Of a DNA stretch of 64,000 nucleotides, positions 10,890 to 50,119 are shown one piece after another. Under the pieces are notes generated by a model. It searched no databases. It was not told the DNA's origin and worked only from the letters and a program-made list of their open reading frames with translations. Position numbers and translations under genes: made by a program. Numbering within the stretch: the first letter of the stretch is position 1; each line of letters opens with the position of its first letter. Origin of the DNA: Rugalucina vietnamica (Eukaryota; Mollusca; Bivalvia; Lucinida; Lucinidae); contig OZ024875.1 of assembly GCA_964017185.1 (NCBI GenBank), positions 48,563,986 through 48,627,985 of the forward strand. The letters are read 5' to 3'.

Positions 10890-11098
10890 GACCAACAATT
10901 TGCATAGGCAAAAACAAAGACGCAGTTCAGCTTCGCAGTAACTGCGAAGCTGATCAGCCCCTTTGTTTTCGCTACTCGGATAGTACAATTCATCTTCCGA
11001 AATTTCAAGCTTCTAGCTCTTTTCTGTGCTTGTACAGGCTGGTTTGTGTCAGACCTGTTCGGAAACCACATTGTTGGTTTTCCCACGAGGAGGCTCAT
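10890..11098 (+). mobile_element. Family B MITE, copy 2 (left end replaced)
   Basis: It has the TTCGCAGTAACTGCGAA stem at about 10930 and the intact right terminus ending GGCTCAT at 11098. The normal left end is replaced by unrelated sequence (10745-10889) with a B-box-like GAGCTCGAACCC, possibly part of a SINE. Confidence 0.8.
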
Positions 11099-25901: not shown

Positions 25902-28900
25902 ATGACAGCCTCATTGATTACTGCCCTTAAAAGATTTAATGGTCATTCTAAACGACTACGGACAATTTTAGAAGAAACAAAACGTTGTTTTGACGACATT
26001 AATGAGAGAACTTTGGATAATGGTATGAAACAAAAACAATAGAAATAACAGCATTCTTTTCCAATGAAAAGTAATCTCTAAAATTTCTTTTACTTTGCAG
26101 TTACACAGAATCTGCACATAATCCTTGCAAGAGGGTACTGCGGTACATATAGAAAGAAAGAAAAATGGAAATATAAGTGAAAGCAAAATGTCAACAGCAA
26201 TTTTCTCCTTTTATATGCGGAATCAAGTGGCATATATATAGCGCTTATATGCCACTTGGCGGAATGTGTTAGCCTTTTGGTAAAGGCTTTAAAGCATCAA
26301 TCTGTATGTTTTTTTTTTGTTTTCTTGTTACTCCCATCAATCAATTTCTGATTATTCTTGGGAGGTGTACATTGTACACTCCGGTGTGCTTGCTGGGTGA
26401 GCCTACATGCATGAGGATAGAACCTGTGTAGGGATCATTAACCTGCACAGGGGATGACTGTCCCTGCACAGGGGGGCCTCCAGTTAACGTCCCAATCCGA
26501 AAGACGGCGCACTGTATCATGTCATCCCTGCAAATGACACGAAGGGAAGCATGTTCGGACCAACAAATTTTCCTCGCCGCAGGCGGGGATTGAACCCGGG
26601 ACCTCTAGCACATGAAGCCAGTGCGCTAACCCCTCGGCTACCTCGCTTGGTATGCTATTAGCCTATTAGGACCAATTCTGGTACTTTAACAGCAGGTGTG
26701 TTCATTTACTGGCTAGTTACATAAAATTGGACAAATATTTTAGTAGCTGTTGGCTATCTGTGTGCAATTGTTGTCATCTGATCAACAATTTAAATATATT
26801 TCAAGAGGTCCTCACCTTGGTTCTACCCCCAAATTGCGTATATTTCCCATGAATTCTGGGTAATTAGCTCTGTCTCAACATGATTGAAAAATTGTTGACT
26901 TTGACATAGATCAACTAAGTCTGACATGTCAGCTGTTTAAATGAATTTTTGATACCTTATTGTTTATTAAAACAACCCATTGAATTTCAATTGGACAGCT
27001 TACAAGTCTGACTACAAGATTCAAGACTTTATTTTACCAATTTTTGGCCCAGCAAGGGCACAAAAAGATGTTGTACAAAGCTTAAGACTAAAGAGTAGAA
27101 GTCTGTCGTTGTTTACTACATGTAAGATCAACTGAAAGCAGGTGAGATGATAGAATGTTTTAGAGCACTATTATTATAAATCAGCAGTTTAATCTACTTG
27201 GGACTGTCTATAAAAAGCACCCCATGCTTCTATATCAAATTAAGTTCTTTTTTTGTTTCTGTTCATTTGGGCTATATGGCTCATTTTTTTCTAGGTCAGC
27301 AGGGATTCACTGCAGAACTTCTACAAGAAGAAGAAGCAGAGATTTTGTGTACTTCTCAGAAACAGCCAGGCATTGTTGTCCTGGGACAGAATGCCTACTG
27401 CAAGTCAAAAGTTGTCAATGAAATCTTCAACAGAACCATATTCCCCACGTTTGACAATACTGATGATAAGACCAAATTTAGGATGGTGAGATTCAAATAT
27501 GGTGACAACTTGAGTGTTAGTCTAGCGTTACCTGGTGATTATGCATTAGTGGATAATTTAGAGGCCCATAACGGGCCCTGGAATACGATTCCGCGTAAGG
27601 ATCTAGAATTTGACAATGAAGATAACTGTGATAATGCTCATGGTGCAGCAGTGTTAGAAGTGACAGTGAACCATCAGCTGCTGAGGTTTGGATGTACGGT
27701 AGTGGTCTCAGAGTGTAATAGTGTAGACACAAGTCAGGTGGCTAGGTGTATAGAAAACATATCTCCAGTTCTGGTGTATGCCTTTCAGACAGACTCACTT
27801 TCCACCAAGGTAGGTATTCATATACTGTGAGTTCAGAAATATTCAATATGTGACTTTTGTTTGGCATTTTTTCTATTTTGGAATTATTACTTATTAGCTA
27901 GCTCTTGAATTCACAATTGTGTACTTTTGCAGTCTTTTTATTTTAGCAAAAAACTTGTGAGCTTTACTGTTCATGTATAATTTACATGGACCAAAAAGCT
28001 GGTCTAGGGTGTTCTTGAATACAAGTACATGTACGAATTTGGCAACATAACATATAAAGAGATTTACAGAGCCTCAAAATAAAGGCTTTGATTAGCTTTA
28101 ACATGGTAAAACATAGCAAAAGAAGATAAAAGTGAGAGTATGAATAACTGAGTGGGACAAGACTACTCTTTATTAGTTCTTTAAATCAAAGACATTAACA
28201 TTTGAGCCGCATCGTGAGAAAACGGGATTATTGCCTATGCGAAAACAAAGGCGCAGATCAGCTTCGCAGTAACTGCGAAGCTGATCAGCGCCTTTGTTTT
28301 CGCTACTCGGATAGTACAATTCCTCTTCTACTTAAATCCGAAATTTCAAGCGTCTAGCTCTTTTCTGAGCTTGTACAGGCCGGTTTGTGTCGGACCTGGT
28401 CGGAAACCCCGAAGACCGGTTTTCTTGCGTCGCGGCTCATTTGATGACTATGAACTTGTCTCATAAGTATAAGTGTTACTAGTGCTTGGGTAAGTTTCTG
28501 TGTTGGTTTTGGTTCACTTGCTGTTTTATATCTTAGTTTAGTTAGATATTGAAGAATAATCAAGTTTAATCCACTAAATGTATGTCATAAGTAATGTGTA
28601 CATGTGTACTTTGTGTGCGGCTTTTAACTTTTATCCAAAACTAATATTTCCATGGGGAAAATAGTAAAATTGTCTATAAGGATTAGCAGCCTTGTATAAA
28701 AGCTGACAATAAGGAAAGGAGGTGGCCTAGAAGTTAGGTTGTTAGACTTCGGATCCAGACATCTTGGGTTCAATCCTCAGCTCATTTCCTCCTCATAGTA
28801 CTGATTGCTGACAAAGAATGGTGGCTCTGTCGCTTCATGACTAAAAATTGTTGCAGGGATGTTAAATCACAAAATGATCAAACAAAAATAAAATCTGACA

Positions 28901-31900
28901 TTAATTTCCCGGTTTATTGCAGGATATTCAAGAGTTAGAGGAAATCAAGCAAATCACTCACTTCCAGCCTATTTGTTTTGTCAAAGTTCCCAATCCTTGG
29001 CCCCCAGACAGTCAAGTGCAGATGGTGTCGGGCGGACCATTCCACTGCGCCCCAGTCTCCACACCGATATCCCCACCAGTAATGGACAACACCGGGGAAC
29101 AGCTGGACTACATGCTGCAAAGTGGTAGTCCAGGGACTGTAAATGTAGATATTAGGCCATTGAGTCTAGATGTTGGGGCTGGGGATTCCAGGGACAGTAT
29201 GCCAGCTCTCCGACGGCATACACAACCTGACAAGTCACCGGCATCTCCGACATCCCCATCTCACAGACAGGGTCGTGTGTTTGTGACCTCTATCCCTCCA
29301 ACAGACTGTACAATGGTATTCAAACAATTATGTGGCATTGGTTACCTCACTGATACCCCCGGTGTTAGAAACATTTCACGAGATATTGTCGGAGATTATT
29401 TCGACGTCGACAGTGTACTTGTGTCAAATTTTGATCATTTCATGTCGTCTTTCACAAACTTTCTAGAACAGACACTTCAGCAGTTTCTAGTGAACTCTGT
29501 CACCGTGCTGAACAATACTCACATACGATGTCTCAACACTTTCATAATATCGGCATTCGACATGGCAAGAGACATGTTAATCACGCCAAAGAAGCTCGAG
29601 TTTGCACGTGACAGGGAGGAGGAGCTATATAAGTCACTGTTACAGATAGCTGTAGATAAGGGAGACGAAATCAAAGACATGATAGCAAACACAATAGCAT
29701 CTAACTGGGATAAATTGGTGGAGAAAGCCAATGATTATGACTTCATAGGTAAGGTTATCCAACTTATCCTGTTTGTGATGAATGGGCTTGTCCATCATTA
29801 TCATTTGGGTGAGTCCACATTCATTTTAAGGGGCATCAAGAGTGGTTTTAAATTTTCATTTCTTTTTTTGATTAAATGAATAAAATTACACATGGACCTC
29901 GTTATAATATGGTTCATTACAACACAGTTTTGGATATAACACTGATCGCTGCTGGACCCCACATTGTCATTGTTGACTATTTTTGCTATATGTCTATACA
30001 TTTTTCTCTTGTTATAACAAGGATTGAATAAGGAACACCGAAATTGGCTTGGACCCCAACAGTAGTGTTAGAGAGAGGTTGTGGTGTATATTTCTCAGTA
30101 ATCATTAAATGAGCCATGTCATGAGACAGACTGTCTTCAAAGTTTCTGAGCAGGTTCAACACATACCGGGCTCTCCTGCCACAGAATAGGGAAAGGGATA
30201 AACTGTTTGATTTAGGAATAAGCAGGATTGTGTTTCATTTGTTCATTACGAAAACATGCCCATATGATATACAGTAATTTTTTTCAGGTCAAAAATCGAT
30301 AATTTTCAGAGGAAAATTTTTGATATTTTTCTTATTTTTGCTCAAAACATAGATTGTGGGAACACGTTAGAACCGCCTCGCTGAGGCGGTTCTAACGAGT
30401 ACCCACAATCTATGTTTTGGAGCAAAAATAAGAAAAATAGGTTTACCCTTGCATACCCCAGTTATACTATATAAAAGTGGGGTATAAGGGGGTATTCATT
30501 TCACGGACATGTTTTCCTGATGTTGTATTTAAAGATACACCCTACTCAGTGGATCATCTGTTTTTCTGATGTATGCAAAATAAGTTTTCATATAACTCAG
30601 CTCAAAATTTGCATCCTATCTGTTAAAACATGCACTCAAGGTGATGCTCTTGACCTCAGAAGTACTTTAATACAGTAATAGAATGGTCATTGCCACATGA
30701 TATTCACCCTGACAAAATCTTTTGAGGCCTCAGATGTTTATTAGCCTGCTTATTCATAGACAGCTTCTAAAGTTTTTGATTAGATAAAGTATTAGCTTAT
30801 GAAACCATGCAATCCCAGTAAGCAGCCTGGTCCCGAAGTTATAAAACTTTTTTCATGCTCTACTCAGCTGAGACTAAAATTTATCCTGCTCATAAATGTT
30901 AAAATGCCAACAATTGTTGACATTTTTTATCAGCAGGATAGATTACAGGCTTTTGTGATCTAAACATGAAATTTCAATTTATTTGGGCTATTTTGGTATT
31001 TATGAGCAGTTTACATTTGATGCTCATCAGGATTGAGCATGAAAAAAGTTTTATAACCTCGGGACCTGCTATATGTCGCACATTGTTGCAAGCTTTATTA
31101 TATTGGCTTGGTTTATCATGTTTATAGTATACATTAGAAAGTTTACCATATGTGACCTTCGTGATTAATCACTGATATCAGGGTGCAATGATTTTAATAA
31201 ACATGATTTCATCGGCTTTATTTCATCATAAGAAAACCTTCAACTTTCTAAACTATTCAAATAGTATGTATGAAATACTGTGGGTTATTGTTTTAGTATT
31301 ATTTTTTGTGTGTATTCATTAGATTTGCCTGGAAGAGGCTTGTTCAATGTTAGGTTCCCAAGTTAAATGCTTTTGCGATTTTTAATACAGTGCATGTCAA
31401 CAAGTAATTATGCCAAGAACCTCTGTTACATATATACATGTACTTAAAGACCTTTCTATAGATATGCATTACATCATAATATGACCAGGAACTAAATGAA
31501 AAAGAAAAATGATATGATTGAAAAGAAATTTAATCTTGATAGGGGTGTACTTTTATATCTTATTGCCATTCATGTCAATGATATTGTAAAAAATAATCTT
31601 GATAATGTTCACGATATTGACTTGGATTGTTATGAGTCCATGAAACACATGCATATGATATCACCCTGATCATCAGGGAGACTCCTGGAAATGAGCAGTA
31701 AAATGACATAAATTTTCTCTAAAATACATGTATGTCACTTTCTTCAAGAAAATTAAAAAAATCCCAGGGATGAACCAAGAATTTTCTTATATATACTACA
31801 TTTTCAAAAAAATCTCCCTGAAATGGGAAATCTCCTTGATGCCACTTTCAAACTCATCATGTCTTTTATTGTCATCTTAACCTGCAAATGGACAATTTTT

Positions 31901-34900
31901 TAAGAACTGTATGAATATATAGAAAGATAATCATTTTTGTCTTGCCATATTGATGGGCATAGCTATTTGATTTGAAAATTGACTCTCTGAGAGAATGTCT
32001 GTATAGTACATGTATTGTTAAAAATTTCAATGACTCTTGAACCTATTAGATTCCCTTTCTGCTTTGAAAGTAAATATTTTAAAATTTTACTCATTGTTGG
32101 AGAAAAGTGCCAGTCTGTCAGACAAACCAGCAGTATTTCATTATGATGGTCAGAAAGTTTCATTCTGTCTGACAAATGTCTGGTCAAGATTTCATTATGA
32201 TTAACATAACTTTAGGAACTTTTCTGCAAACTAAGCCTTTTTCCAGCAAGAATTTGCTATTTTGTAGCAGCTAGCTCAAGTAGACTGAAGAAAGATTTCA
32301 TGAAGACTGGTTGATTTGCTCGCAACCCTATTTCTATGCTTTCCTGTTTGTTTAGACTTACTTGAATGGTGTCTCATAATTCAGGAAAATACATTATGAA
32401 TATGGCATGATATAAAATTGCAGGTGTTGACTTCAGTGAGAAGGGAGAGATATTGACCCCTAAAGGGCTGAAGATATGTACGGGTCAGATCCAGGAGCTG
32501 GTTCTAGGAGGTCTGAACCAGGCTGTAGCAGGGAAACTTGTCAGTTCTGTTGATATTCTCAGGGATTCATACACAGGTAAATGCAGTATGCAACTTAGAT
32601 CAGTGAATTCATTGTATAAAAAACATTTCGTCTAACAGACATTTCATCTAAAGGACATTTCGTCTAAAGGACATTATGCCTAAATGTCATTTTGTCTAAT
32701 GGACATTTCGTCTTAATACGACATTTTGTCTAAAGTTCGTCTAAAAATGTCTAAAAACATCTAAAATTCGTCTAAAACTCGTCTTAAACATAAATGATAA
32801 GGAGAACAAATTTTATTGATGATATTTAATAGCTCAAATTGTAGACAATCCATGTATTTCATATCTAAAATGGTATAATAAAATGGTAGATAGTATAAGC
32901 CATATTGTGCAATTCTGTGCATATTGTGCATGGTCAAATAATAAAAACGTTGTTTAGAATATGTTTCTACATGTTTATGTTTTAAAAACTCAGAATGTTT
33001 TACTGATGTGAAAGGATTGAAAGAAAAATATGATCTACACTAATGTCTGTGTAAAAAGAAATGATAAACAAATATAGACCTCACATTGATTAATATTGAT
33101 TTAAAGTAGGGTACGACATTTGGTCTAAAAAGTCTTCAATTTTCAACTGTTTTTTAGACCAAATGTCATACATGCTTGATTTTATAGACAAATTGTCCAT
33201 TAGACAAAATGTCCTTTAGACGAAATGTCATGTAGACAAATTAATTGTTCTTTAGACCAAATGTCCTTGAGACGAATTGGCATTTAGACAAAATATCCTT
33301 TAGATGAAAGGGCATTTAGATGAAATGGTTTTAGACAAAATATCCTGCACCCCACAAATTTATGAGAACCTTGTAGAAATATGGAAGTGACATCCCAACC
33401 GGGCTATAGCTTTTGACAGAGATATTAAGCAACAAAAGAAACAAACAAAATTTTGCATGTATATTTTTGCTACTTTTCAGGCACTTTAACCAGGTGTTTG
33501 GAAAGTTTGGAGAAAGTTGAAAGAGAAAACCCAGCTACAACACAAGCTCTCAAACAGGTACTGTACTATATTTGTAGAACTTGACTGGGAAGCATGATGA
33601 TTTGTGTAACTAGTGAGGCCATATCAGGGGAAAGAGGTCTTAGCTTCCTTCTCACTGACAGAAAAGTGACCTTTCTTCCCAGCTCCCTAAAATGTTTTCC
33701 TCAGATCCCTGCTCCCTAAAACCCCAAAAGTTTTTGCTTGCTCCCCAGCTCCCTGAAAATAAATGGCCCTTCTCCCTCATCTACAAAACCCCTAATAGGG
33801 CCCCAGGGGGTCAAGAGTTGATCCCGCTGTTTGACAAATCAAAATGCAGTCAGACTACATTGTATGTGATTGTTTGATAGCTCTTAATGTGCAGCCAATA
33901 GAAGACTGATTGATTTAAAGGCTGACCTGTCATTTTGCTGCTTTGAAAGCAGGAAAGCATTACATTCTTTCTCTATCTATAAAATTCTTATCTGTAAAAG
34001 AGAAAGCCTTTAATTGAGACTTCGATTACTTAGATCTAGTTGCCTTCAATGACTTATTCAAATTCTGGCATTTATTTGTCATTGTGCACAATATGATATA
34101 TTTGCAGATATTAAATGCAGCGTACCAAGTGGAGATTACCGTGAGGTCAAGTTCGACCTTGATTCATTTTCTCCTTGAGAGAATGAAACAGGTGAGACAA
34201 CCACAGAGATGTGTAAACTAGAGTGAGCTCCCTTGGTGTAATTGAAAAAAGACAAACATTTGAGACCTATTTCTGTTTCCCATCATTTTGGTGAATGTCG
34301 CAGTCCATATACACAAAATTGTTCCTGCAAAACACAAATTGTTTTATACAGTTGGCGTTAATTTGCAATAAAAATGTTCCTGTTTGTGACAGTAGTTCAT
34401 AGAGTTTTGGATTCTCTCAGGTTTTACTTTTCTGCCGACAACTAAGTAAAGCCTTATTTCAAGGATTTTGAATTATACTTTAAAAAAAAAAAGTCCGAAT
34501 AAAAAGTCAGAAATGTATGTCTCAAGTGATTGTCTGTAAATCATTTGCACATGGACCTCACTCTGTTATATTTGAGCCACCTCGTGGGAAAACCAACAAT
34601 GTGGTTTTCGAACAGGTCCGACACAAACCGGACTGTACACGCACTGAAAAGAGCTAGAAGCTTGAAATTTCGGATTTAAGTAGAAGAGGAATTGTACTAT
34701 CCGAGTAGCGAAAACAAAGGCGCTGATCAGTTTCGCGGTTACCGCGAAGCTGATCTGCGTCTTTGTTTTCGCCTATGCAGATTGTTGGTTTTCCCATGAG
34801 GCGGCTCATTTATATGAAGTTGTTAATATTTCACCATATTTTTACCACAGATAGTACAAATGACATATCGTCTTGAGTTGTCCGTCAATACGAGCTACAC

Positions 34901-37900
34901 GCAGGTGTTACGTAAAAAAATGCAAAAGGTATGGCACTCAATGTAAACTGTAGGTCTCTCAGTTCATAATTTTTCTTGCTAACTAATTAGCATGGTTTCT
35001 GCTAAATGTGCTTTGTGCAAGCTTTAATACTGTTTCTCATCTTTTATCATAGCTTTTGCTTCATTTACAAAAGAATAGCAGATTAGGGGCATCATGACTT
35101 TTGTGGTTAGTTTTTTCAGTAAATATGCCCAATTTTGTTATAATCGATCTTCTAGTCTTTCCGAATAGCTCGGTTGGTAGAGCGTTGGTCTTCAGATACG
35201 GAGGACCTGGGTTCGAATCCCAGCGCGGCCACTGAGTTGTTTGGTTGTGTCCTTGAGCAAGGCACTTTACAGATATTACAGGTGTATAAATGGGTACCTG
35301 TGAGGGATGCATGCCAGTGTACCGCGGCTGCCTGTAGCGCCATGTGTTAGTGGTCGACATACATCTCAGTGACCAGGGGAGTTAATGTGGAAGTCAGTTG
35401 AACATTCATTGAGAGTGGATAACAGACTATAAACCGTCAACTTTAACTTTTAAAATACAGCAGACATATAAGATCTGGTTATAGAATTTTCTGTCCATCC
35501 AAATTATGGAAAAGTTAGAACCAATGTCACTAACTAATCATCAAGAAGTCTTCTAACTGGTTTGCTGCAGTCAACTCTAGTGTGGGTTACTTGTTCTTCA
35601 TGTCATTCACATCAGGAAAACACGTCCGTGCAGTGAATACCCCCTTAAACCACAATTTTATACAGTAAAACTGGAGTTTGCAGGGGTACACCTATTTTTA
35701 GCTCACCTGAGCCGAAGGCTCACAAGGTGAGCTTATAGGATGGCCATGATCCGGCGTCCGTCCGTCCGTCCGTCGTCCGTCGTCCACAATTTCAAAGATC
35801 TTCTTCTCTGAAACCGCATGGCCGATCTAGTTGAAATTTTATGTGGAGCCTCCTTGGGTAGTGGCATTTCAAGTTTGATCGCCAAATCTAGGTCACATGA
35901 CCAAGATGGCCGCCACGCCCATATATGGTAAAAACCCTTCAAAAATCTTCTTCTCCAGAACCGGTGGGCCGATTTCCACGAAACTTGGTATGTAGCATCG
36001 GGGGCTTCAGCCCATCATAGTTTGATAAAATGATGACCCTTGGATGCCCTTGACCTATTTTACGGCAAGGTCAAATTTGGAAACATAGGCTTTTACATGG
36101 GAAAAAGTGAAAACTATGGATTTTTTGAAAACTATTGCAGCCTGAGGCCTGAAAAGTGGTAGATGCAAACAACTAATGGAGTAGATGAAGGTATGTGATT
36201 AATTTAGGTCAAGGTCATCTCTTGACCTTGGCCAGTCAGTCGTCCATACACACTTTTCAAAGATCTTCTTCTCTGAAACTGCTGGGCCAATCAAAGTGAA
36301 ATTTTTATGTGGAGCCTCCTTGGGTAGTGGCATTTCAAGTTTGATCGCGAAATCTAGGTCACATGACCAAGATGGCCGCCACGCCCATATATGGTAAAAA
36401 CCACTCAAAAATCTTCTCCAGAACCGGCAGGCCGATTTTCATGAAACTTGGTATGTAGCATTTGGGACTCCAGCCCATCATAGTTTGATAAAATGATGAC
36501 CCTAGGATGACCTTGACATATTTTACGGCAAGGTCAATTTTGGAAACATAGGCTTTTACATGGGAAAAAGTGAAAACTATGGATTTTTTGAAAACTATTG
36601 CAGCCTGATGCCTGAAAAGTGGTGGATGCAAACAACTAATGGAGTAGATGAAGGTATGTGATTAATTTAGGTCAAGGTCATCTCTTGACCTTGGCCAGTC
36701 TGTCGTCCATACACACTTTTCACAGATCTTCTTCTCTGAAACTGCTGGGCCAATCAAAGTGAAATTTTATGTGGAACATCCATGGGTAGGGGAGACGAAA
36801 GTTTGATCGTGAAATCCAGGTCACATGACCAAGATGGCTGCCACGCCCATATATGGTAAAAACCACTCAAAAATCTTTTTCTCCAGAACCGGCAGGCCAA
36901 TTTTCGCGAAACTTGGTATGTAGCATTTGGGACTCCAGCCCATCATAGTTTGATCAAATGATGACCATAGGATGACCTTGACTTTTTTTACGGCAAGGTC
37001 AATTTTGGAAACATAGGCTTTTACATGGGAAAAGGCAAAAACAATGGATATTTTGGAAACTGTTGCAGTCTGAGACCTGAAAGTTGCTAGATGCAGACAA
37101 CCGATGGAGTCAATGAAGGTAAGTAATTAATGAAGGCCAAGGTCATTTCTTGACCTTGACCCAAGGTCATTTGAATATCAAAATTAAAATTATAGTTTTC
37201 TCAGAAATCACTGGGTTTGGAAACTATTGCAGCCTGAGACCTGAATCTTTGCAGATGCAGACAACTTATGAATTCAATAAAGGTGTGTGAGTATTCAAGG
37301 TCAAGGTCATTTCATGATGACTTAATACTCCAGGATCAGGCTTCAGGTGAACGTTCTCAGGACCATTGGTCCTCTGGTTCTTATTTTTGCTCCAAAACAT
37401 AGATTGTGGGTACTTGTTAGAACCGCCTCGCCGTGTGGTCTAACATGTACCCACAATCTGTTTTGAGCAAAAATAAAAAAATATCAAAAGTTTTCCACTG
37501 AAACTTTTCAATTTGTACAACTTTAAAAATCACAGTATATTGCATGGGTAAGTTTTCGTAATTCACTTCATTTCTCTTTATGCACTTTAGATAGAACATT
37601 GTTAGCCAATTTTGTGTTTACATCCCACTAAACATCTAAAGGTCATATGGCAATAGTACCTCAGGTACTTATACATGTACTATAGTCCTCCAAAAGACTG
37701 GAGAAGCTGGAAATCAAACCCACCACCCCTAGTTTGCAAGGCAGGTAGCTTATCTACTAATCCATGGAGACTTCTAACATTGTTTTATTTCATTAAGAAA
37801 ACTTGCCCATACAAATATACAGCCATTTTTTTTTCAGCTGTAAAAATTAAAAATTTCATCGGAAAAATTTCGATATTTCTAACATTTTTGCTCAAAACAT

Positions 37901-40900: not shown

Positions 40901-43900
40901 TAAGCTTTGTATGCAAGCAAAATATAAATATGCTTCCCCCATTATGTTCAGCAATTTTGATTAATTTTCTCAAGAAGGGCATCTTTCAATTACAGGGAAA
41001 CATGTGATTTATTTTTATTAAATCAAAATATTGTTCTTAGCAATACATGTAGTCAAAAGACTATAGTGCCACTAAGTTGTGTTTATGAGGTTGAAAATGT
41101 ACACATTTTTAGCTCACCTGAGCCGAAGGCTGATGGGGAGCTTATAGTATGGTACTCGAGCCGGCATCCCTGTGTGCGTGCATGCGTCCATCTGTGCATG
41201 CGTGCGTTCACATTTTCAAAGACCTTCTTCTCTGAAACCGCTTGGCCAATCAAAGCCAAATTTTATATGAAGCATCTATAGGAAGTGGGAACCAATGTAG
41301 ATATAAATAATCCAGGTCACATGACCAAGTTGGCCGTTATGCCCATATACATGTATGGTAAAAACCCATCAAAAATCTTCTTCTCTGGAACTGGTGGACC
41401 GATTTCAATGAAACTTGGCATGAAGCATCTATGACTCAAGTACTATAATGTGTATATAAATCATGACCCTGCAATTACCATGACCTATTTTACAGCAAGG
41501 TCAGGTTTGGAAACATTGGCTTTTACATGGGAAAAAGTGAAAACTATGGATTTTTGGAACGCTATTGCAGCCTGAGACCTGCAAACAAGTAATAGACTAG
41601 ATGAAGGTATTTGATTAATTTAGGTCAAGGTCATCTCTTAACCTTGGCTGGTCTGTTGTCCTTACACACTTTTCAAAGATCTTCTCTGAAACAGTTTTGC
41701 CAATGAAAGCCAAGTTTTTATGTGGGGCCTCCATGGGTAGTGGGAACAAAAGTGTGATTGCAAAATCCTTGTCACATGATCAAGATGGCCACCACGCCCA
41801 TATATGGTAAAGACCACTCAAAAATCTTCTTCTCCAGAACCAGCAAGTGGATTTTTATGAAACTTGGTATGTAGCATTAAGGACTCTAGCCCATTGTAGT
41901 TTTATCAAATGATGACCCTTGGGTGACCTTGACTTATTTTACAGCAAGGTCAATTTTGGAAACATACGCTTTTACATGGGAAAAAGTGAAAACAATGTTT
42001 TTTTTTGAAAACTGTTGCAGACTGAGACCTGAAAAGTGGTAGATGAGGAGAACTGATGGAGTGAAGAAAAGTATGTGATTAATTAATCACCTTGACCCAT
42101 CTTATGCTTTTCAAAGATCTTCTCTGTAACTATTTGTTTTGACTCTCAGGTGAGCGATCGTGTCAAGTTCTGTCAGAAACACCAAACTTTGGCTTTATTA
42201 CAAAGCGGCCTGTCTATTTCCAGCTTGTCCAGGCCATGCCGTGGAGTAACCCACCTCGTATTGATGATGAATGGAAGAAGAAAGTAGCCTCAGAAATGTT
42301 GACCAGTCTCTCAGCTGGAAGGTAATACGAGCCACTGCATGAGAATGCCAACAATCTGCATATGCGAAACCAAAGGCGCAGATCAGCTGTGCAGAAACTG
42401 CACAGCTGATCAGCACCTTTGTTTTCGCTACTCAACTAGTACTATTCCCCTTTTACTTAAATCCAAAATTTCAAGCTTCTAGCCTGCTCCTGTGACTGTA
42501 CAGGCCAATTTGTGTCGGACCTGTTCAGAAATTAAGATTGTTAGTTTTCTTATGTGAAGGCTCATATAGCAATGGTTCACTTCACTAGGGGCTTTATAAC
42601 AGGGAAAAATGTTTAAAATGATTTGTTTCAAGTTTGACACATTGGTGATTAAGATTGTTATGGTTGGACAGGAAAGATGTACTTCATGAATTGATTGGGA
42701 TATTTTGTTAACGCCCTGACAATTGCTTGAAGTACTTTTATCTTAACATTTACAATGTATGTTGATCAGTCATTACAACAGCAGTCTAGCTAAATAAAGC
42801 ATTTGGAAAAAAAATATAGGCAAACTTTAAGGTCCTGGTCTATAATTAAGCTATATGGGAAACGGAAACAGTGTTGATCATTTGCACATCTCTTGAGCAT
42901 GTATGTCAGTATGTGGTTGGTATAAGAGGGAACATCCTACACACCAATTTTGCTGACTTATTTCCCACTTTGATGTACTTTTCAGTGAAAATGATTTTAG
43001 ACAAATAGTGACTCATCTTGATGTCTTTAAAAGATGCAGTCATTTCCTTATTCTGAAAGATTTACAATGTGTAGACTACAAACTGAGCCGTGACTTTGGG
43101 GTTTCTGACCAGTTCTGACCAGATTTCGGAAGAAAAGGAATTGTGCTATCCGAGTAGCGAAAACAAAGGCGCTGATCAGCTGTGCAGTTACTGCACAGCT
43201 GATCTGCGCCTTTGTTTTCGCATAGGCAAAAATCTGGTTTTCTCATGATGAGGCTCAATTAGTTTGCCCATGAAGAGTTTGTGGTTTTGGCCTGCCCAAG
43301 CGATAAAACAAAAAGCAAACCAAACAATAAACAATAAAATAATTTTAAGATAAAAAAATAATTTGACATTATTAAGGAAGGTCCCTTTGATTTTCGTATA
43401 CTGAAGGTAAATAACTTTTTTCCGCAATGAGAGTAACTGTTACAGAGTAATATTACCTCCCTCAGATTGAATATTTTTATCATTTCCTTCTAACAGTGTT
43501 ACAGTTTGAATATATTTTTCTATTACAAAAACATGAACCTCCCATCTTCTTGCACTCCTTTAACTCAAGCAATCCTGGTGTACCCGGTACTATATATGGA
43601 ACATAGGCAAACAGCATAAACTCGGAACTGGCCCACAAAATGGGGCATCACATCTAGAGCAAATTTACAGAAAAAATGAAATTAGATTAATATAACTCCT
43701 GAGTCACCTTTAAATGAAAGTGGATTCATCCAAATGATAATGATGGGCATGTCATTTTGTCACAAATTGGTCAAATTTCTTGTCCCTCTTTTCCAGATTA
43801 GCCAAGAGTATCTCCTCCCAGATCAAGGAGCGTCTCAACAAGTCTCACGAGGCTTTCTCGAGTGCCCTGAAACAGCTGGAGTCCAAACATTGCGGCCGGC

Positions 43901-49744: not shown

Positions 49745-50119
49745 TGTGTTCGGGGTTCTCCAATGGTACCATTTGGGAAAACCAACAATGTGGTTTCCGA
49801 ACAGATCCGACACAAAACGGGCTGTACAGTCACAGGAGATAGCTAGAAGCTGGAAATTTTGGATTAAGAAAGTAGAGGCATTGTACTATCCGTGTAACGA
49901 AAACAAAGGCGCTGATCAGCTTCGCGGTTACTGCGAAGCTGATCTGCGTCTTTGTTTTCGCATATGCAGATTGTTGGTTTTCTCATGATGTGGCTCATTT
50001 GTACCAATTTAATTACCAATGGTACCATTGGTAAAGAAATTGGTGCAAATGGTAAAAATGGTAATGCCATTGGTAACAATGTTACCAACCAATGGTACCA
50101 TTGGGAGAACCCTCGAACA
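49745..50119. mobile_element. Inverted-repeat element with nested family B copy 15
   Basis: The ends read TGTGTTCGGGGTTCTCCAAT and the inverse ATTGGGAGAACCCTCGAACACA. Near the right end are several ACCAATGGTACCATTGGTAA-type blocks in both orientations. A family B MITE (about 49770-49998, stem CTTCGCGGTTACTGCGAAG) occupies the left half. Confidence 0.7.

What the first reader, a model, noticed from the sequence alone, without database searches (positions are those of the whole stretch)
34108..34928. Tandemly duplicated exon pair in DSTYK: candidate mutually exclusive exons
Seen: exons 6 (28 codons) and 7 (26 codons) are adjacent, both phase 0/0, both with good splice sites, and similar in sequence (I....Y..E..V..S.T pattern, then L...M near the end; about 8 identities by eye). 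Exon 6 joins exon 8 as vertebrate DSTYK does; exon 7 also joins exon 8 in frame. Known: vertebrate DSTYK has one such segment (memory). Inferred: an exon duplication that either adds 26 residues or is used alternatively, changing the region before the kinase domain.
Basis: partly seen in the sequence, partly recalled or inferred. Interest (0 to 1): 0.8.

Follow-up and report, generated by a model that had tools for sequence, protein, structure and literature searches.

The report
Duplicated kinase exon, probably alternatively spliced
In an animal gene for the kinase DSTYK one short exon is followed by an old, still intact copy of itself, so the animal could probably make two versions of the protein, although no RNA data here show which versions are made.

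Summary
Exons 6 (34108-34191, 28 codons) and 7 (34851-34928, 26 codons) of a DSTYK-like gene are adjacent, phase 0/0, with GT-AG sites, and homologous: 8 identities and 19 positive columns of 28; 8 of 1,000,000 shuffles reach the score. Of 1,437 open AG..GT candidates in the window, exon 7 alone outside the exon-6 locus reaches it, and only one other has both splice sites as good by a recalled matrix. Identity of 12/19/10 of 26 at codon positions 1/2/3 suggests an old copy under protein-level selection.

Mutual exclusion is not shown. All three joins stay in frame and the 659-nt intron has an ordinary branch-point region, so frame and present steric enforcement are absent or unlikely. That intron holds a high-copy MITE ending 36 nt before exon 7 and a single-copy ~60-nt stem. 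Leaving out both, 65 nt remain, about 40 from donor to branch point, under the published ~50-nt limit: a hint, not proof, of a once sterically exclusive pair. No relatives or RNA reads were available. New member of a known kind.

The parts
33481..33557 (+). DSTYK exon 5, ends phase 0 (...ALKQ), donor CAG|gtactg
   Evidence: donor 4.8 bits by recalled matrix, lowest of 13 scored
34108..34191 (+). Exon 6, 28 codons, phase 0/0, [28 protein letters not shown]; the counterpart of the human segment
   Evidence: 15 of 28 identical to the recalled human segment; tblastn 53% over 32 residues; acceptor 2.0 bits, donor 11.6
34192..34850 (+). Intron 6, 659 nt, holding a single-copy stem and a MITE
34216..34275 (+). 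Left arm of a single-copy imperfect stem (partner 34508-34567)
   Evidence: arm borders; duplex -56.8 kcal/mol, 0 of 500 one-arm shuffles as low; 34192-34566 folds with z -6.3; no other genomic match to 34219-34566; arm pattern hardly commoner than its reversed control
34508..34567 (+). Right arm of the same stem
34567..34814 (+). Palindromic MITE-like repeat with 37-nt terminal inverted arms, ending 36 nt before exon 7
   Evidence: arms; of 2,851 first-look candidates the best 40 were scored: this copy and 39 others at 95-98% identity; copies in the window are 75-92% identical over 180 bases or more
34851..34928 (+). Exon 7, 26 codons, phase 0/0, [26 protein letters not shown]; duplicate of exon 6
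   Evidence: one genomic match by DNA
42224..42321 (+). DSTYK exon 8, joins exon 6 or exon 7 in frame

Best explanation
Exon 7 is an old tandem duplicate of exon 6 that codes for an alternative version of the same segment of DSTYK, about 105 residues before the kinase domain in human numbering. Most likely one or the other is chosen (5-6-8 or 5-7-8) by regulated splice-site choice. Shown: homology, intact frame, plausible splice sites, the codon-position pattern of protein-level constraint, frame-compatible joins. Inferred: that exon 7 is spliced into mRNA, that it replaces rather than adds to exon 6, that the segment is a strand-turn-helix, and that the choice changes partner binding or control of the kinase.
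For: End-to-end homology (8 of 1,000,000 shuffles; among 1,437 candidates reached only by exon 7 and by three that are or overlap exon 6). Identity by codon position 12/19/10 of 26; codon shuffles reach these in 722, 0 and 3,044 of 20,000: old and constrained. Nearly equal length; same alternation of hydrophobic residues at positions 6, 8, 10 and 12 in exon 6, exon 7 and the recalled human segment. Exon 7 resembles the recalled human segment on its own (19 positive of 26 aligned positions, 2 of 20,000 shuffles as good). Splice sites: 2 of 1,437 candidates, exon 7 included, have both sites as good by a recalled matrix. Exon 6's acceptor is weak (2.0 bits, second lowest of 13), as regulated exons often are (general knowledge). 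It fits the search criteria that PMC5740500 used for candidate exclusive exons: neighbouring, same frame, length difference within 20 aa, similarity (section read), though WebScipio's own score was not computed.
Against: No transcript evidence. Nothing found forces exclusion: 84 and 78 nt keep the frame; intron 6 is 659 nt; the nearest AG upstream of exon 7's acceptor is at -33, so a distant branch point is unlikely; intron 5 shows no complementarity to introns 6 or 7 above 40 shuffles, and the match of intron 6 to intron 7 lies in the MITE. A small matrix trained on this gene's own 12 other acceptors scores exon 7's acceptor badly (-4.4, 56% of all AGs score as high). Codon usage does not separate exon 7 from non-coding candidates (158 of 1,006 as high), nor exon 6 (296 of 1,006). 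PMC5740500 states that many similar neighbouring exons are not spliced exclusively (passage).
Confidence: 0.58

Rival explanations
1. Both exons are included (5-6-7-8), always or as a cassette, so that the protein carries a second 26-residue repeat before the kinase domain.
For: All joins are in frame. Exon 6 has the strongest donor of 13 scored (11.6 bits) and exon 7 a good acceptor (8.0 bits) by the recalled matrix. The intron-6 stem and the MITE hairpin together would bring that donor and acceptor close.
Against: The human protein as recalled has one segment; exon 7 kept nearly the same length and residue pattern, as a substitute would. Neither point is decisive.
Confidence: 0.3
2. Exon 7 is a relic: a once used duplicate that is no longer spliced.
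For: It diverged more than exon 6 (6 against 15 identities to the recalled human segment); a MITE whose best relatives are 95-98% identical lies 36 nt upstream; the gene-trained acceptor model scores it poorly.
Against: No stop in 26 codons, both splice sites present, second codon positions conserved against a near-random third position.
Confidence: 0.09
3. The likeness is chance and exon 7 is not an exon.
For: Local similarity alone is within the range of unrelated six-frame segments (34 against 33, 32, 32).
Against: End-to-end score, place, phase and splice sites together.
Confidence: 0.03

Closest known systems
Tandem duplicated exon substitution events (e.g. FYN, PGM1; PMC9741552, passages seen)
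   Same: Adjacent homologous exons of nearly equal length, same phase, in an old gene; FYN is a kinase whose swap covers the linker and the start of its kinase domain.
   Different: Gene: DSTYK does not occur in the main text of PMC9741552, PMC5740500 or PMC9013439 (term counts; supplements not seen). No RNA or peptide evidence here.
OGDH exons 4a/4b (PMC7969005, passages seen)
   Same: Homologous exon pair. The paper reports exclusion enforced by branch points 25-41 nt from the donor, below a proposed ~50-nt steric threshold, with transposon insertions disfavoured.
   Different: Here the intron is 659 nt, a distant branch point is not supported, and a MITE has inserted.
Dscam-type competing RNA structures (PMC6071210, passages seen)
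   Same: Tandem exons with stable intronic RNA structure.
   Different: The stem here lies wholly between the two exons; no selector shared by both exons and no docking site was found.
Vertebrate DSTYK
   Same: Exon 6 and most of the gene align with human DSTYK (recalled sequence).
   Different: A second copy of the exon-6 segment; its absence in vertebrates is recalled, not tested.

Membership tests
DSTYK | Kinase domain exons of DSTYK type | tested here: met
   tblastn with recalled human DSTYK, up to 85% identity in kinase exons; Pfam kinase families in 3 of 3 kinase exons scanned at E below 0.001, over the curated cut-off in 1
DSTYK | DSTYK-specific N-terminal region | tested here: met
   37-58% identity to the recalled human protein over exons 2, 3, 4 and 9; exon 1 only weakly (E 3.9)
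Tandem exon duplication | Homology of the neighbouring exons beyond chance | tested here: met
   8 of 1,000,000 shuffles
Tandem exon duplication | Same phase, no stop, splice sites on both sides | tested here: met
   the gene-trained acceptor model disagrees on the acceptor
Mutually exclusive exons | One and only one exon in each transcript | not testable with these tools
   no RNA data
Mutually exclusive exons | Joint inclusion breaks the frame (optional mechanism) | tested here: not met
   84 and 78 nt, 5-6-7-8 stays open
Mutually exclusive exons | Donor to branch point under ~50 nt (optional mechanism) | tested here: not met
   659-nt intron, candidate branch points at -25 and -18, nearest AG at -33; would be about 40 nt if the stem and MITE were both left out
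Mutually exclusive exons | U2/U12 incompatibility (optional mechanism) | tested here: not met
   by inspection only: GT-AG, ordinary U2-type donors
Mutually exclusive exons | Competing docking/selector pairing (optional mechanism) | tested here: inconclusive
   no complementarity above 40 shuffles between intron 5 and introns 6 or 7; no relatives to test covariation
Mutually exclusive exons | Conservation of both exons in relatives | not tested
   no related animal genome held; protein scans of genome contigs and viral contigs gave no relative

The most novel reading that the evidence does not exclude
The two exons were once parted by an intron of about 65 nt, with about 40 nt from donor to branch point, and so were mutually exclusive by steric hindrance. 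First a fold-back element now seen as the single-copy stem, then a young MITE, enlarged the intron to 659 nt. This either broke the exclusion or moved it to RNA structure, since both inserts fold away and leave the signals close together.
Probability: 0.12. Interest if true: 0.65.

Novelty: new member of a known kind. Interest (0 to 1): 0.42.

Why it matters
Little is known of DSTYK's non-kinase region: the N-terminal pieces scanned (parts of exons 2 and 3, spliced exons 4-9) match no Pfam family over its cut-off, and spliced exons 4-9 find no PDB chain better than E 0.23. A natural pair of alternative segments would mark a place where evolution tunes this kinase. If the intron history is right, species with and without the inserts would allow a direct test of how transposons loosen mutually exclusive splicing.

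Tried and rejected
Searching relatives: the search for related loci in genome contigs (57 stretches matched a pattern, none confirmed) and viral contigs (13 matched, none confirmed) found nothing, as expected for an animal gene. PDB gave six hits, the best at E 0.23. A whole-genome protein search for DSTYK paralogues or spliced retrocopies, which could have shown real exon joins, was asked for eleven times and never answered, so paralogues are untested. A first family search with PF07714 listed 150 kinase matches from 139 of 728 candidates scored, none inside the window, so it did not pick up this gene's short exons. Exon 7 DNA has one genomic match, itself.

Codon usage could not tell exon 7 or exon 6 from non-coding candidates. 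A splice matrix from this gene's own sites was too small to trust and had the exon 9 donor set one base off; it gave exon 7 a fair donor (7.1, 2.1% of GTs as high) and a poor acceptor, and 51 of 4,379 candidates, exons 6 and 7 included, matched exon 7 on both sites. The recalled human-like matrix gave 5 of 4,379, exon 7 included. In both counts stops in the first 63 bases were not filtered; the corrected count is 2 of 1,437, exon 7 included. A look for splicing-factor motifs around the exons gave nothing I could use.

The idea that the intron-6 stem is a repeat family was tested and not supported (one search shows that the search finds a real repeat family). Steric, frame and U12 enforcement in the present gene were rejected. 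No structure prediction was run, because the spliced protein is not given letter for letter by contiguous DNA, which that tool requires.

Full report
What is there. The window lies in a 1.09-Gb genome of 47 contigs. A human DSTYK protein recalled from memory aligns exon by exon along 27366-48866 on the + strand, with a weak exon 1 match at 25902 (E 3.9) and a gap over human residues 272-302. Pfam kinase families match 3 of 3 kinase exons scanned at E below 0.001, one of them over the curated cut-off. Exon 5 (33481-33557), exon 6 (34108-34191), exon 7 (34851-34928) and exon 8 (42224-42321) have GT-AG borders, and the joins 5-6-8, 5-7-8 and 5-6-7-8 are all open through exons 4 to 9.

Is exon 7 a copy of exon 6? 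The two peptides align end to end with one 2-residue gap, 8 identities and 19 positive columns of 28, score 34. Shuffles of exon 7 reach this 8 times in 1,000,000. On this strand introns 5-7 offer 79 open phase-0 candidates, so roughly 0.0006 such matches are expected there by chance. In the whole window, both strands, four of 1,437 candidates reach 34: three that are or overlap exon 6, and exon 7. The five other pairs among exons 5-8 score below zero. By local score alone exon 7 would not stand out.

Is it under selection? Over the 26 aligned codons, identity is 12, 19 and 10 at positions 1, 2 and 3. Shuffling codons gives about 7 at each and reaches the observed value in 722, 0 and 3,044 of 20,000. 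That is what an old duplicate looks like whose protein was kept while silent sites drifted. Hydrophobic residues alternate at positions 6, 8, 10 and 12 in both exons and in the recalled human segment, which fits a beta strand (inference). Exon 6 is closer to the human segment (15 identities) than exon 7 is (6), so exon 6 is the conserved copy and exon 7 the divergent one. Codon usage was uninformative.

Can it be spliced? With a recalled human-like matrix exon 7 scores 8.4 (donor) and 8.0 (acceptor), inside the range of the gene's other scored sites, while exon 6 has the best donor (11.6) and a weak acceptor (2.0). Only one other of 1,437 open candidates has both sites as good. A matrix trained on this gene's few sites disagrees about exon 7's acceptor. 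Branch-point-like motifs lie at -25 and -18 and the nearest upstream AG at -33.

What could enforce a choice? Not the frame, not U12 sites, and not the present intron length. PMC5740500 (passages) reports potential steric interference in 57 (9%) and frame incompatibility in 377 (60%) of human clusters, so lack of the first is usual, lack of the second less so. PMC7969005 (passages) gives about 50 nt as a proposed donor-to-branch-point limit.

Intron 6. Two fold-backs fill most of it. The MITE at 34567-34814 is abundant, with 2,851 first-look candidates in the genome; of the 40 best, which alone were scored, 39 are other copies at 95-98% identity, which suggests a young insertion, although copies in this window are more diverged. 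The upstream stretch folds with z -6.3; its arms 34216-34275 and 34508-34567 pair at -56.8 kcal/mol, 0 of 500 shuffles as low. The arms' alignment score of 27 exceeds 500 shuffles (maximum 23), but six of 187 windows scanned across the gene score 27 or more too, one of them over this MITE, and three near an inverted repeat of intron 7; the other two were not examined. The stem may therefore be an old decayed transposon. Yet it has no other match in the genome, and its arm pattern with up to two mismatches is hardly commoner (1,103) than the reversed control (1,028). With the borders I set, 65 nt remain when both are left out, against 427-7,295 nt for the 11 other introns measured. This is the basis of the novel case.

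Literature. Searches for DSTYK with mutually exclusive exons (one paper), oyster (none), and alternative splicing plus invertebrate (one paper) gave no paper on such a pair, judging from the listings. Searches on exclusive or duplicated exons with mollusc, bivalve or Crassostrea were seen as listings, capped at 20 in the last two. DSTYK is absent from the main text of three exon-duplication papers (term counts). Passages of a RIP-kinase comparison (PMC9573974) and a DSTYK cancer paper (PMC8636471) say nothing of such exons; the word exon does not occur in the former. Supplements and subscription papers were not seen.

Verdict. A real, old tandem exon duplication in DSTYK; probably an alternative exon, with exclusivity unproven.

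Noticed in passing
window 35166-35223: tRNA-like match (Rfam RF00005, 29.3 bits, just over the cut-off) in intron 7, not called by ARAGORN with its bacterial setting; looks like a tRNA-derived SINE head.
   Followed up: partly
window 34567-34814, with copies e.g. at 49774-50003, 28203-28408, 10891-11097, 42329-42568: High-copy palindromic MITE family, many copies in this window and 2,851 first-look candidates in the genome.
   Followed up: partly
window 35700-37380 and 41110-42110: Repeated units beginning 'agctcacctgagccgaaggc', several diverged copies in intron 7; seen by eye.
   Followed up: no
window 32620-33340: Intron 4 stretch rich in short motifs like 'gacatttcgtctaa' in both orientations; seen by eye.
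   Followed up: no
window 30780-31138: Strongest fold-back of the 187 windows scanned across the gene (score 53 against a median of 12), in intron 3.
   Followed up: no
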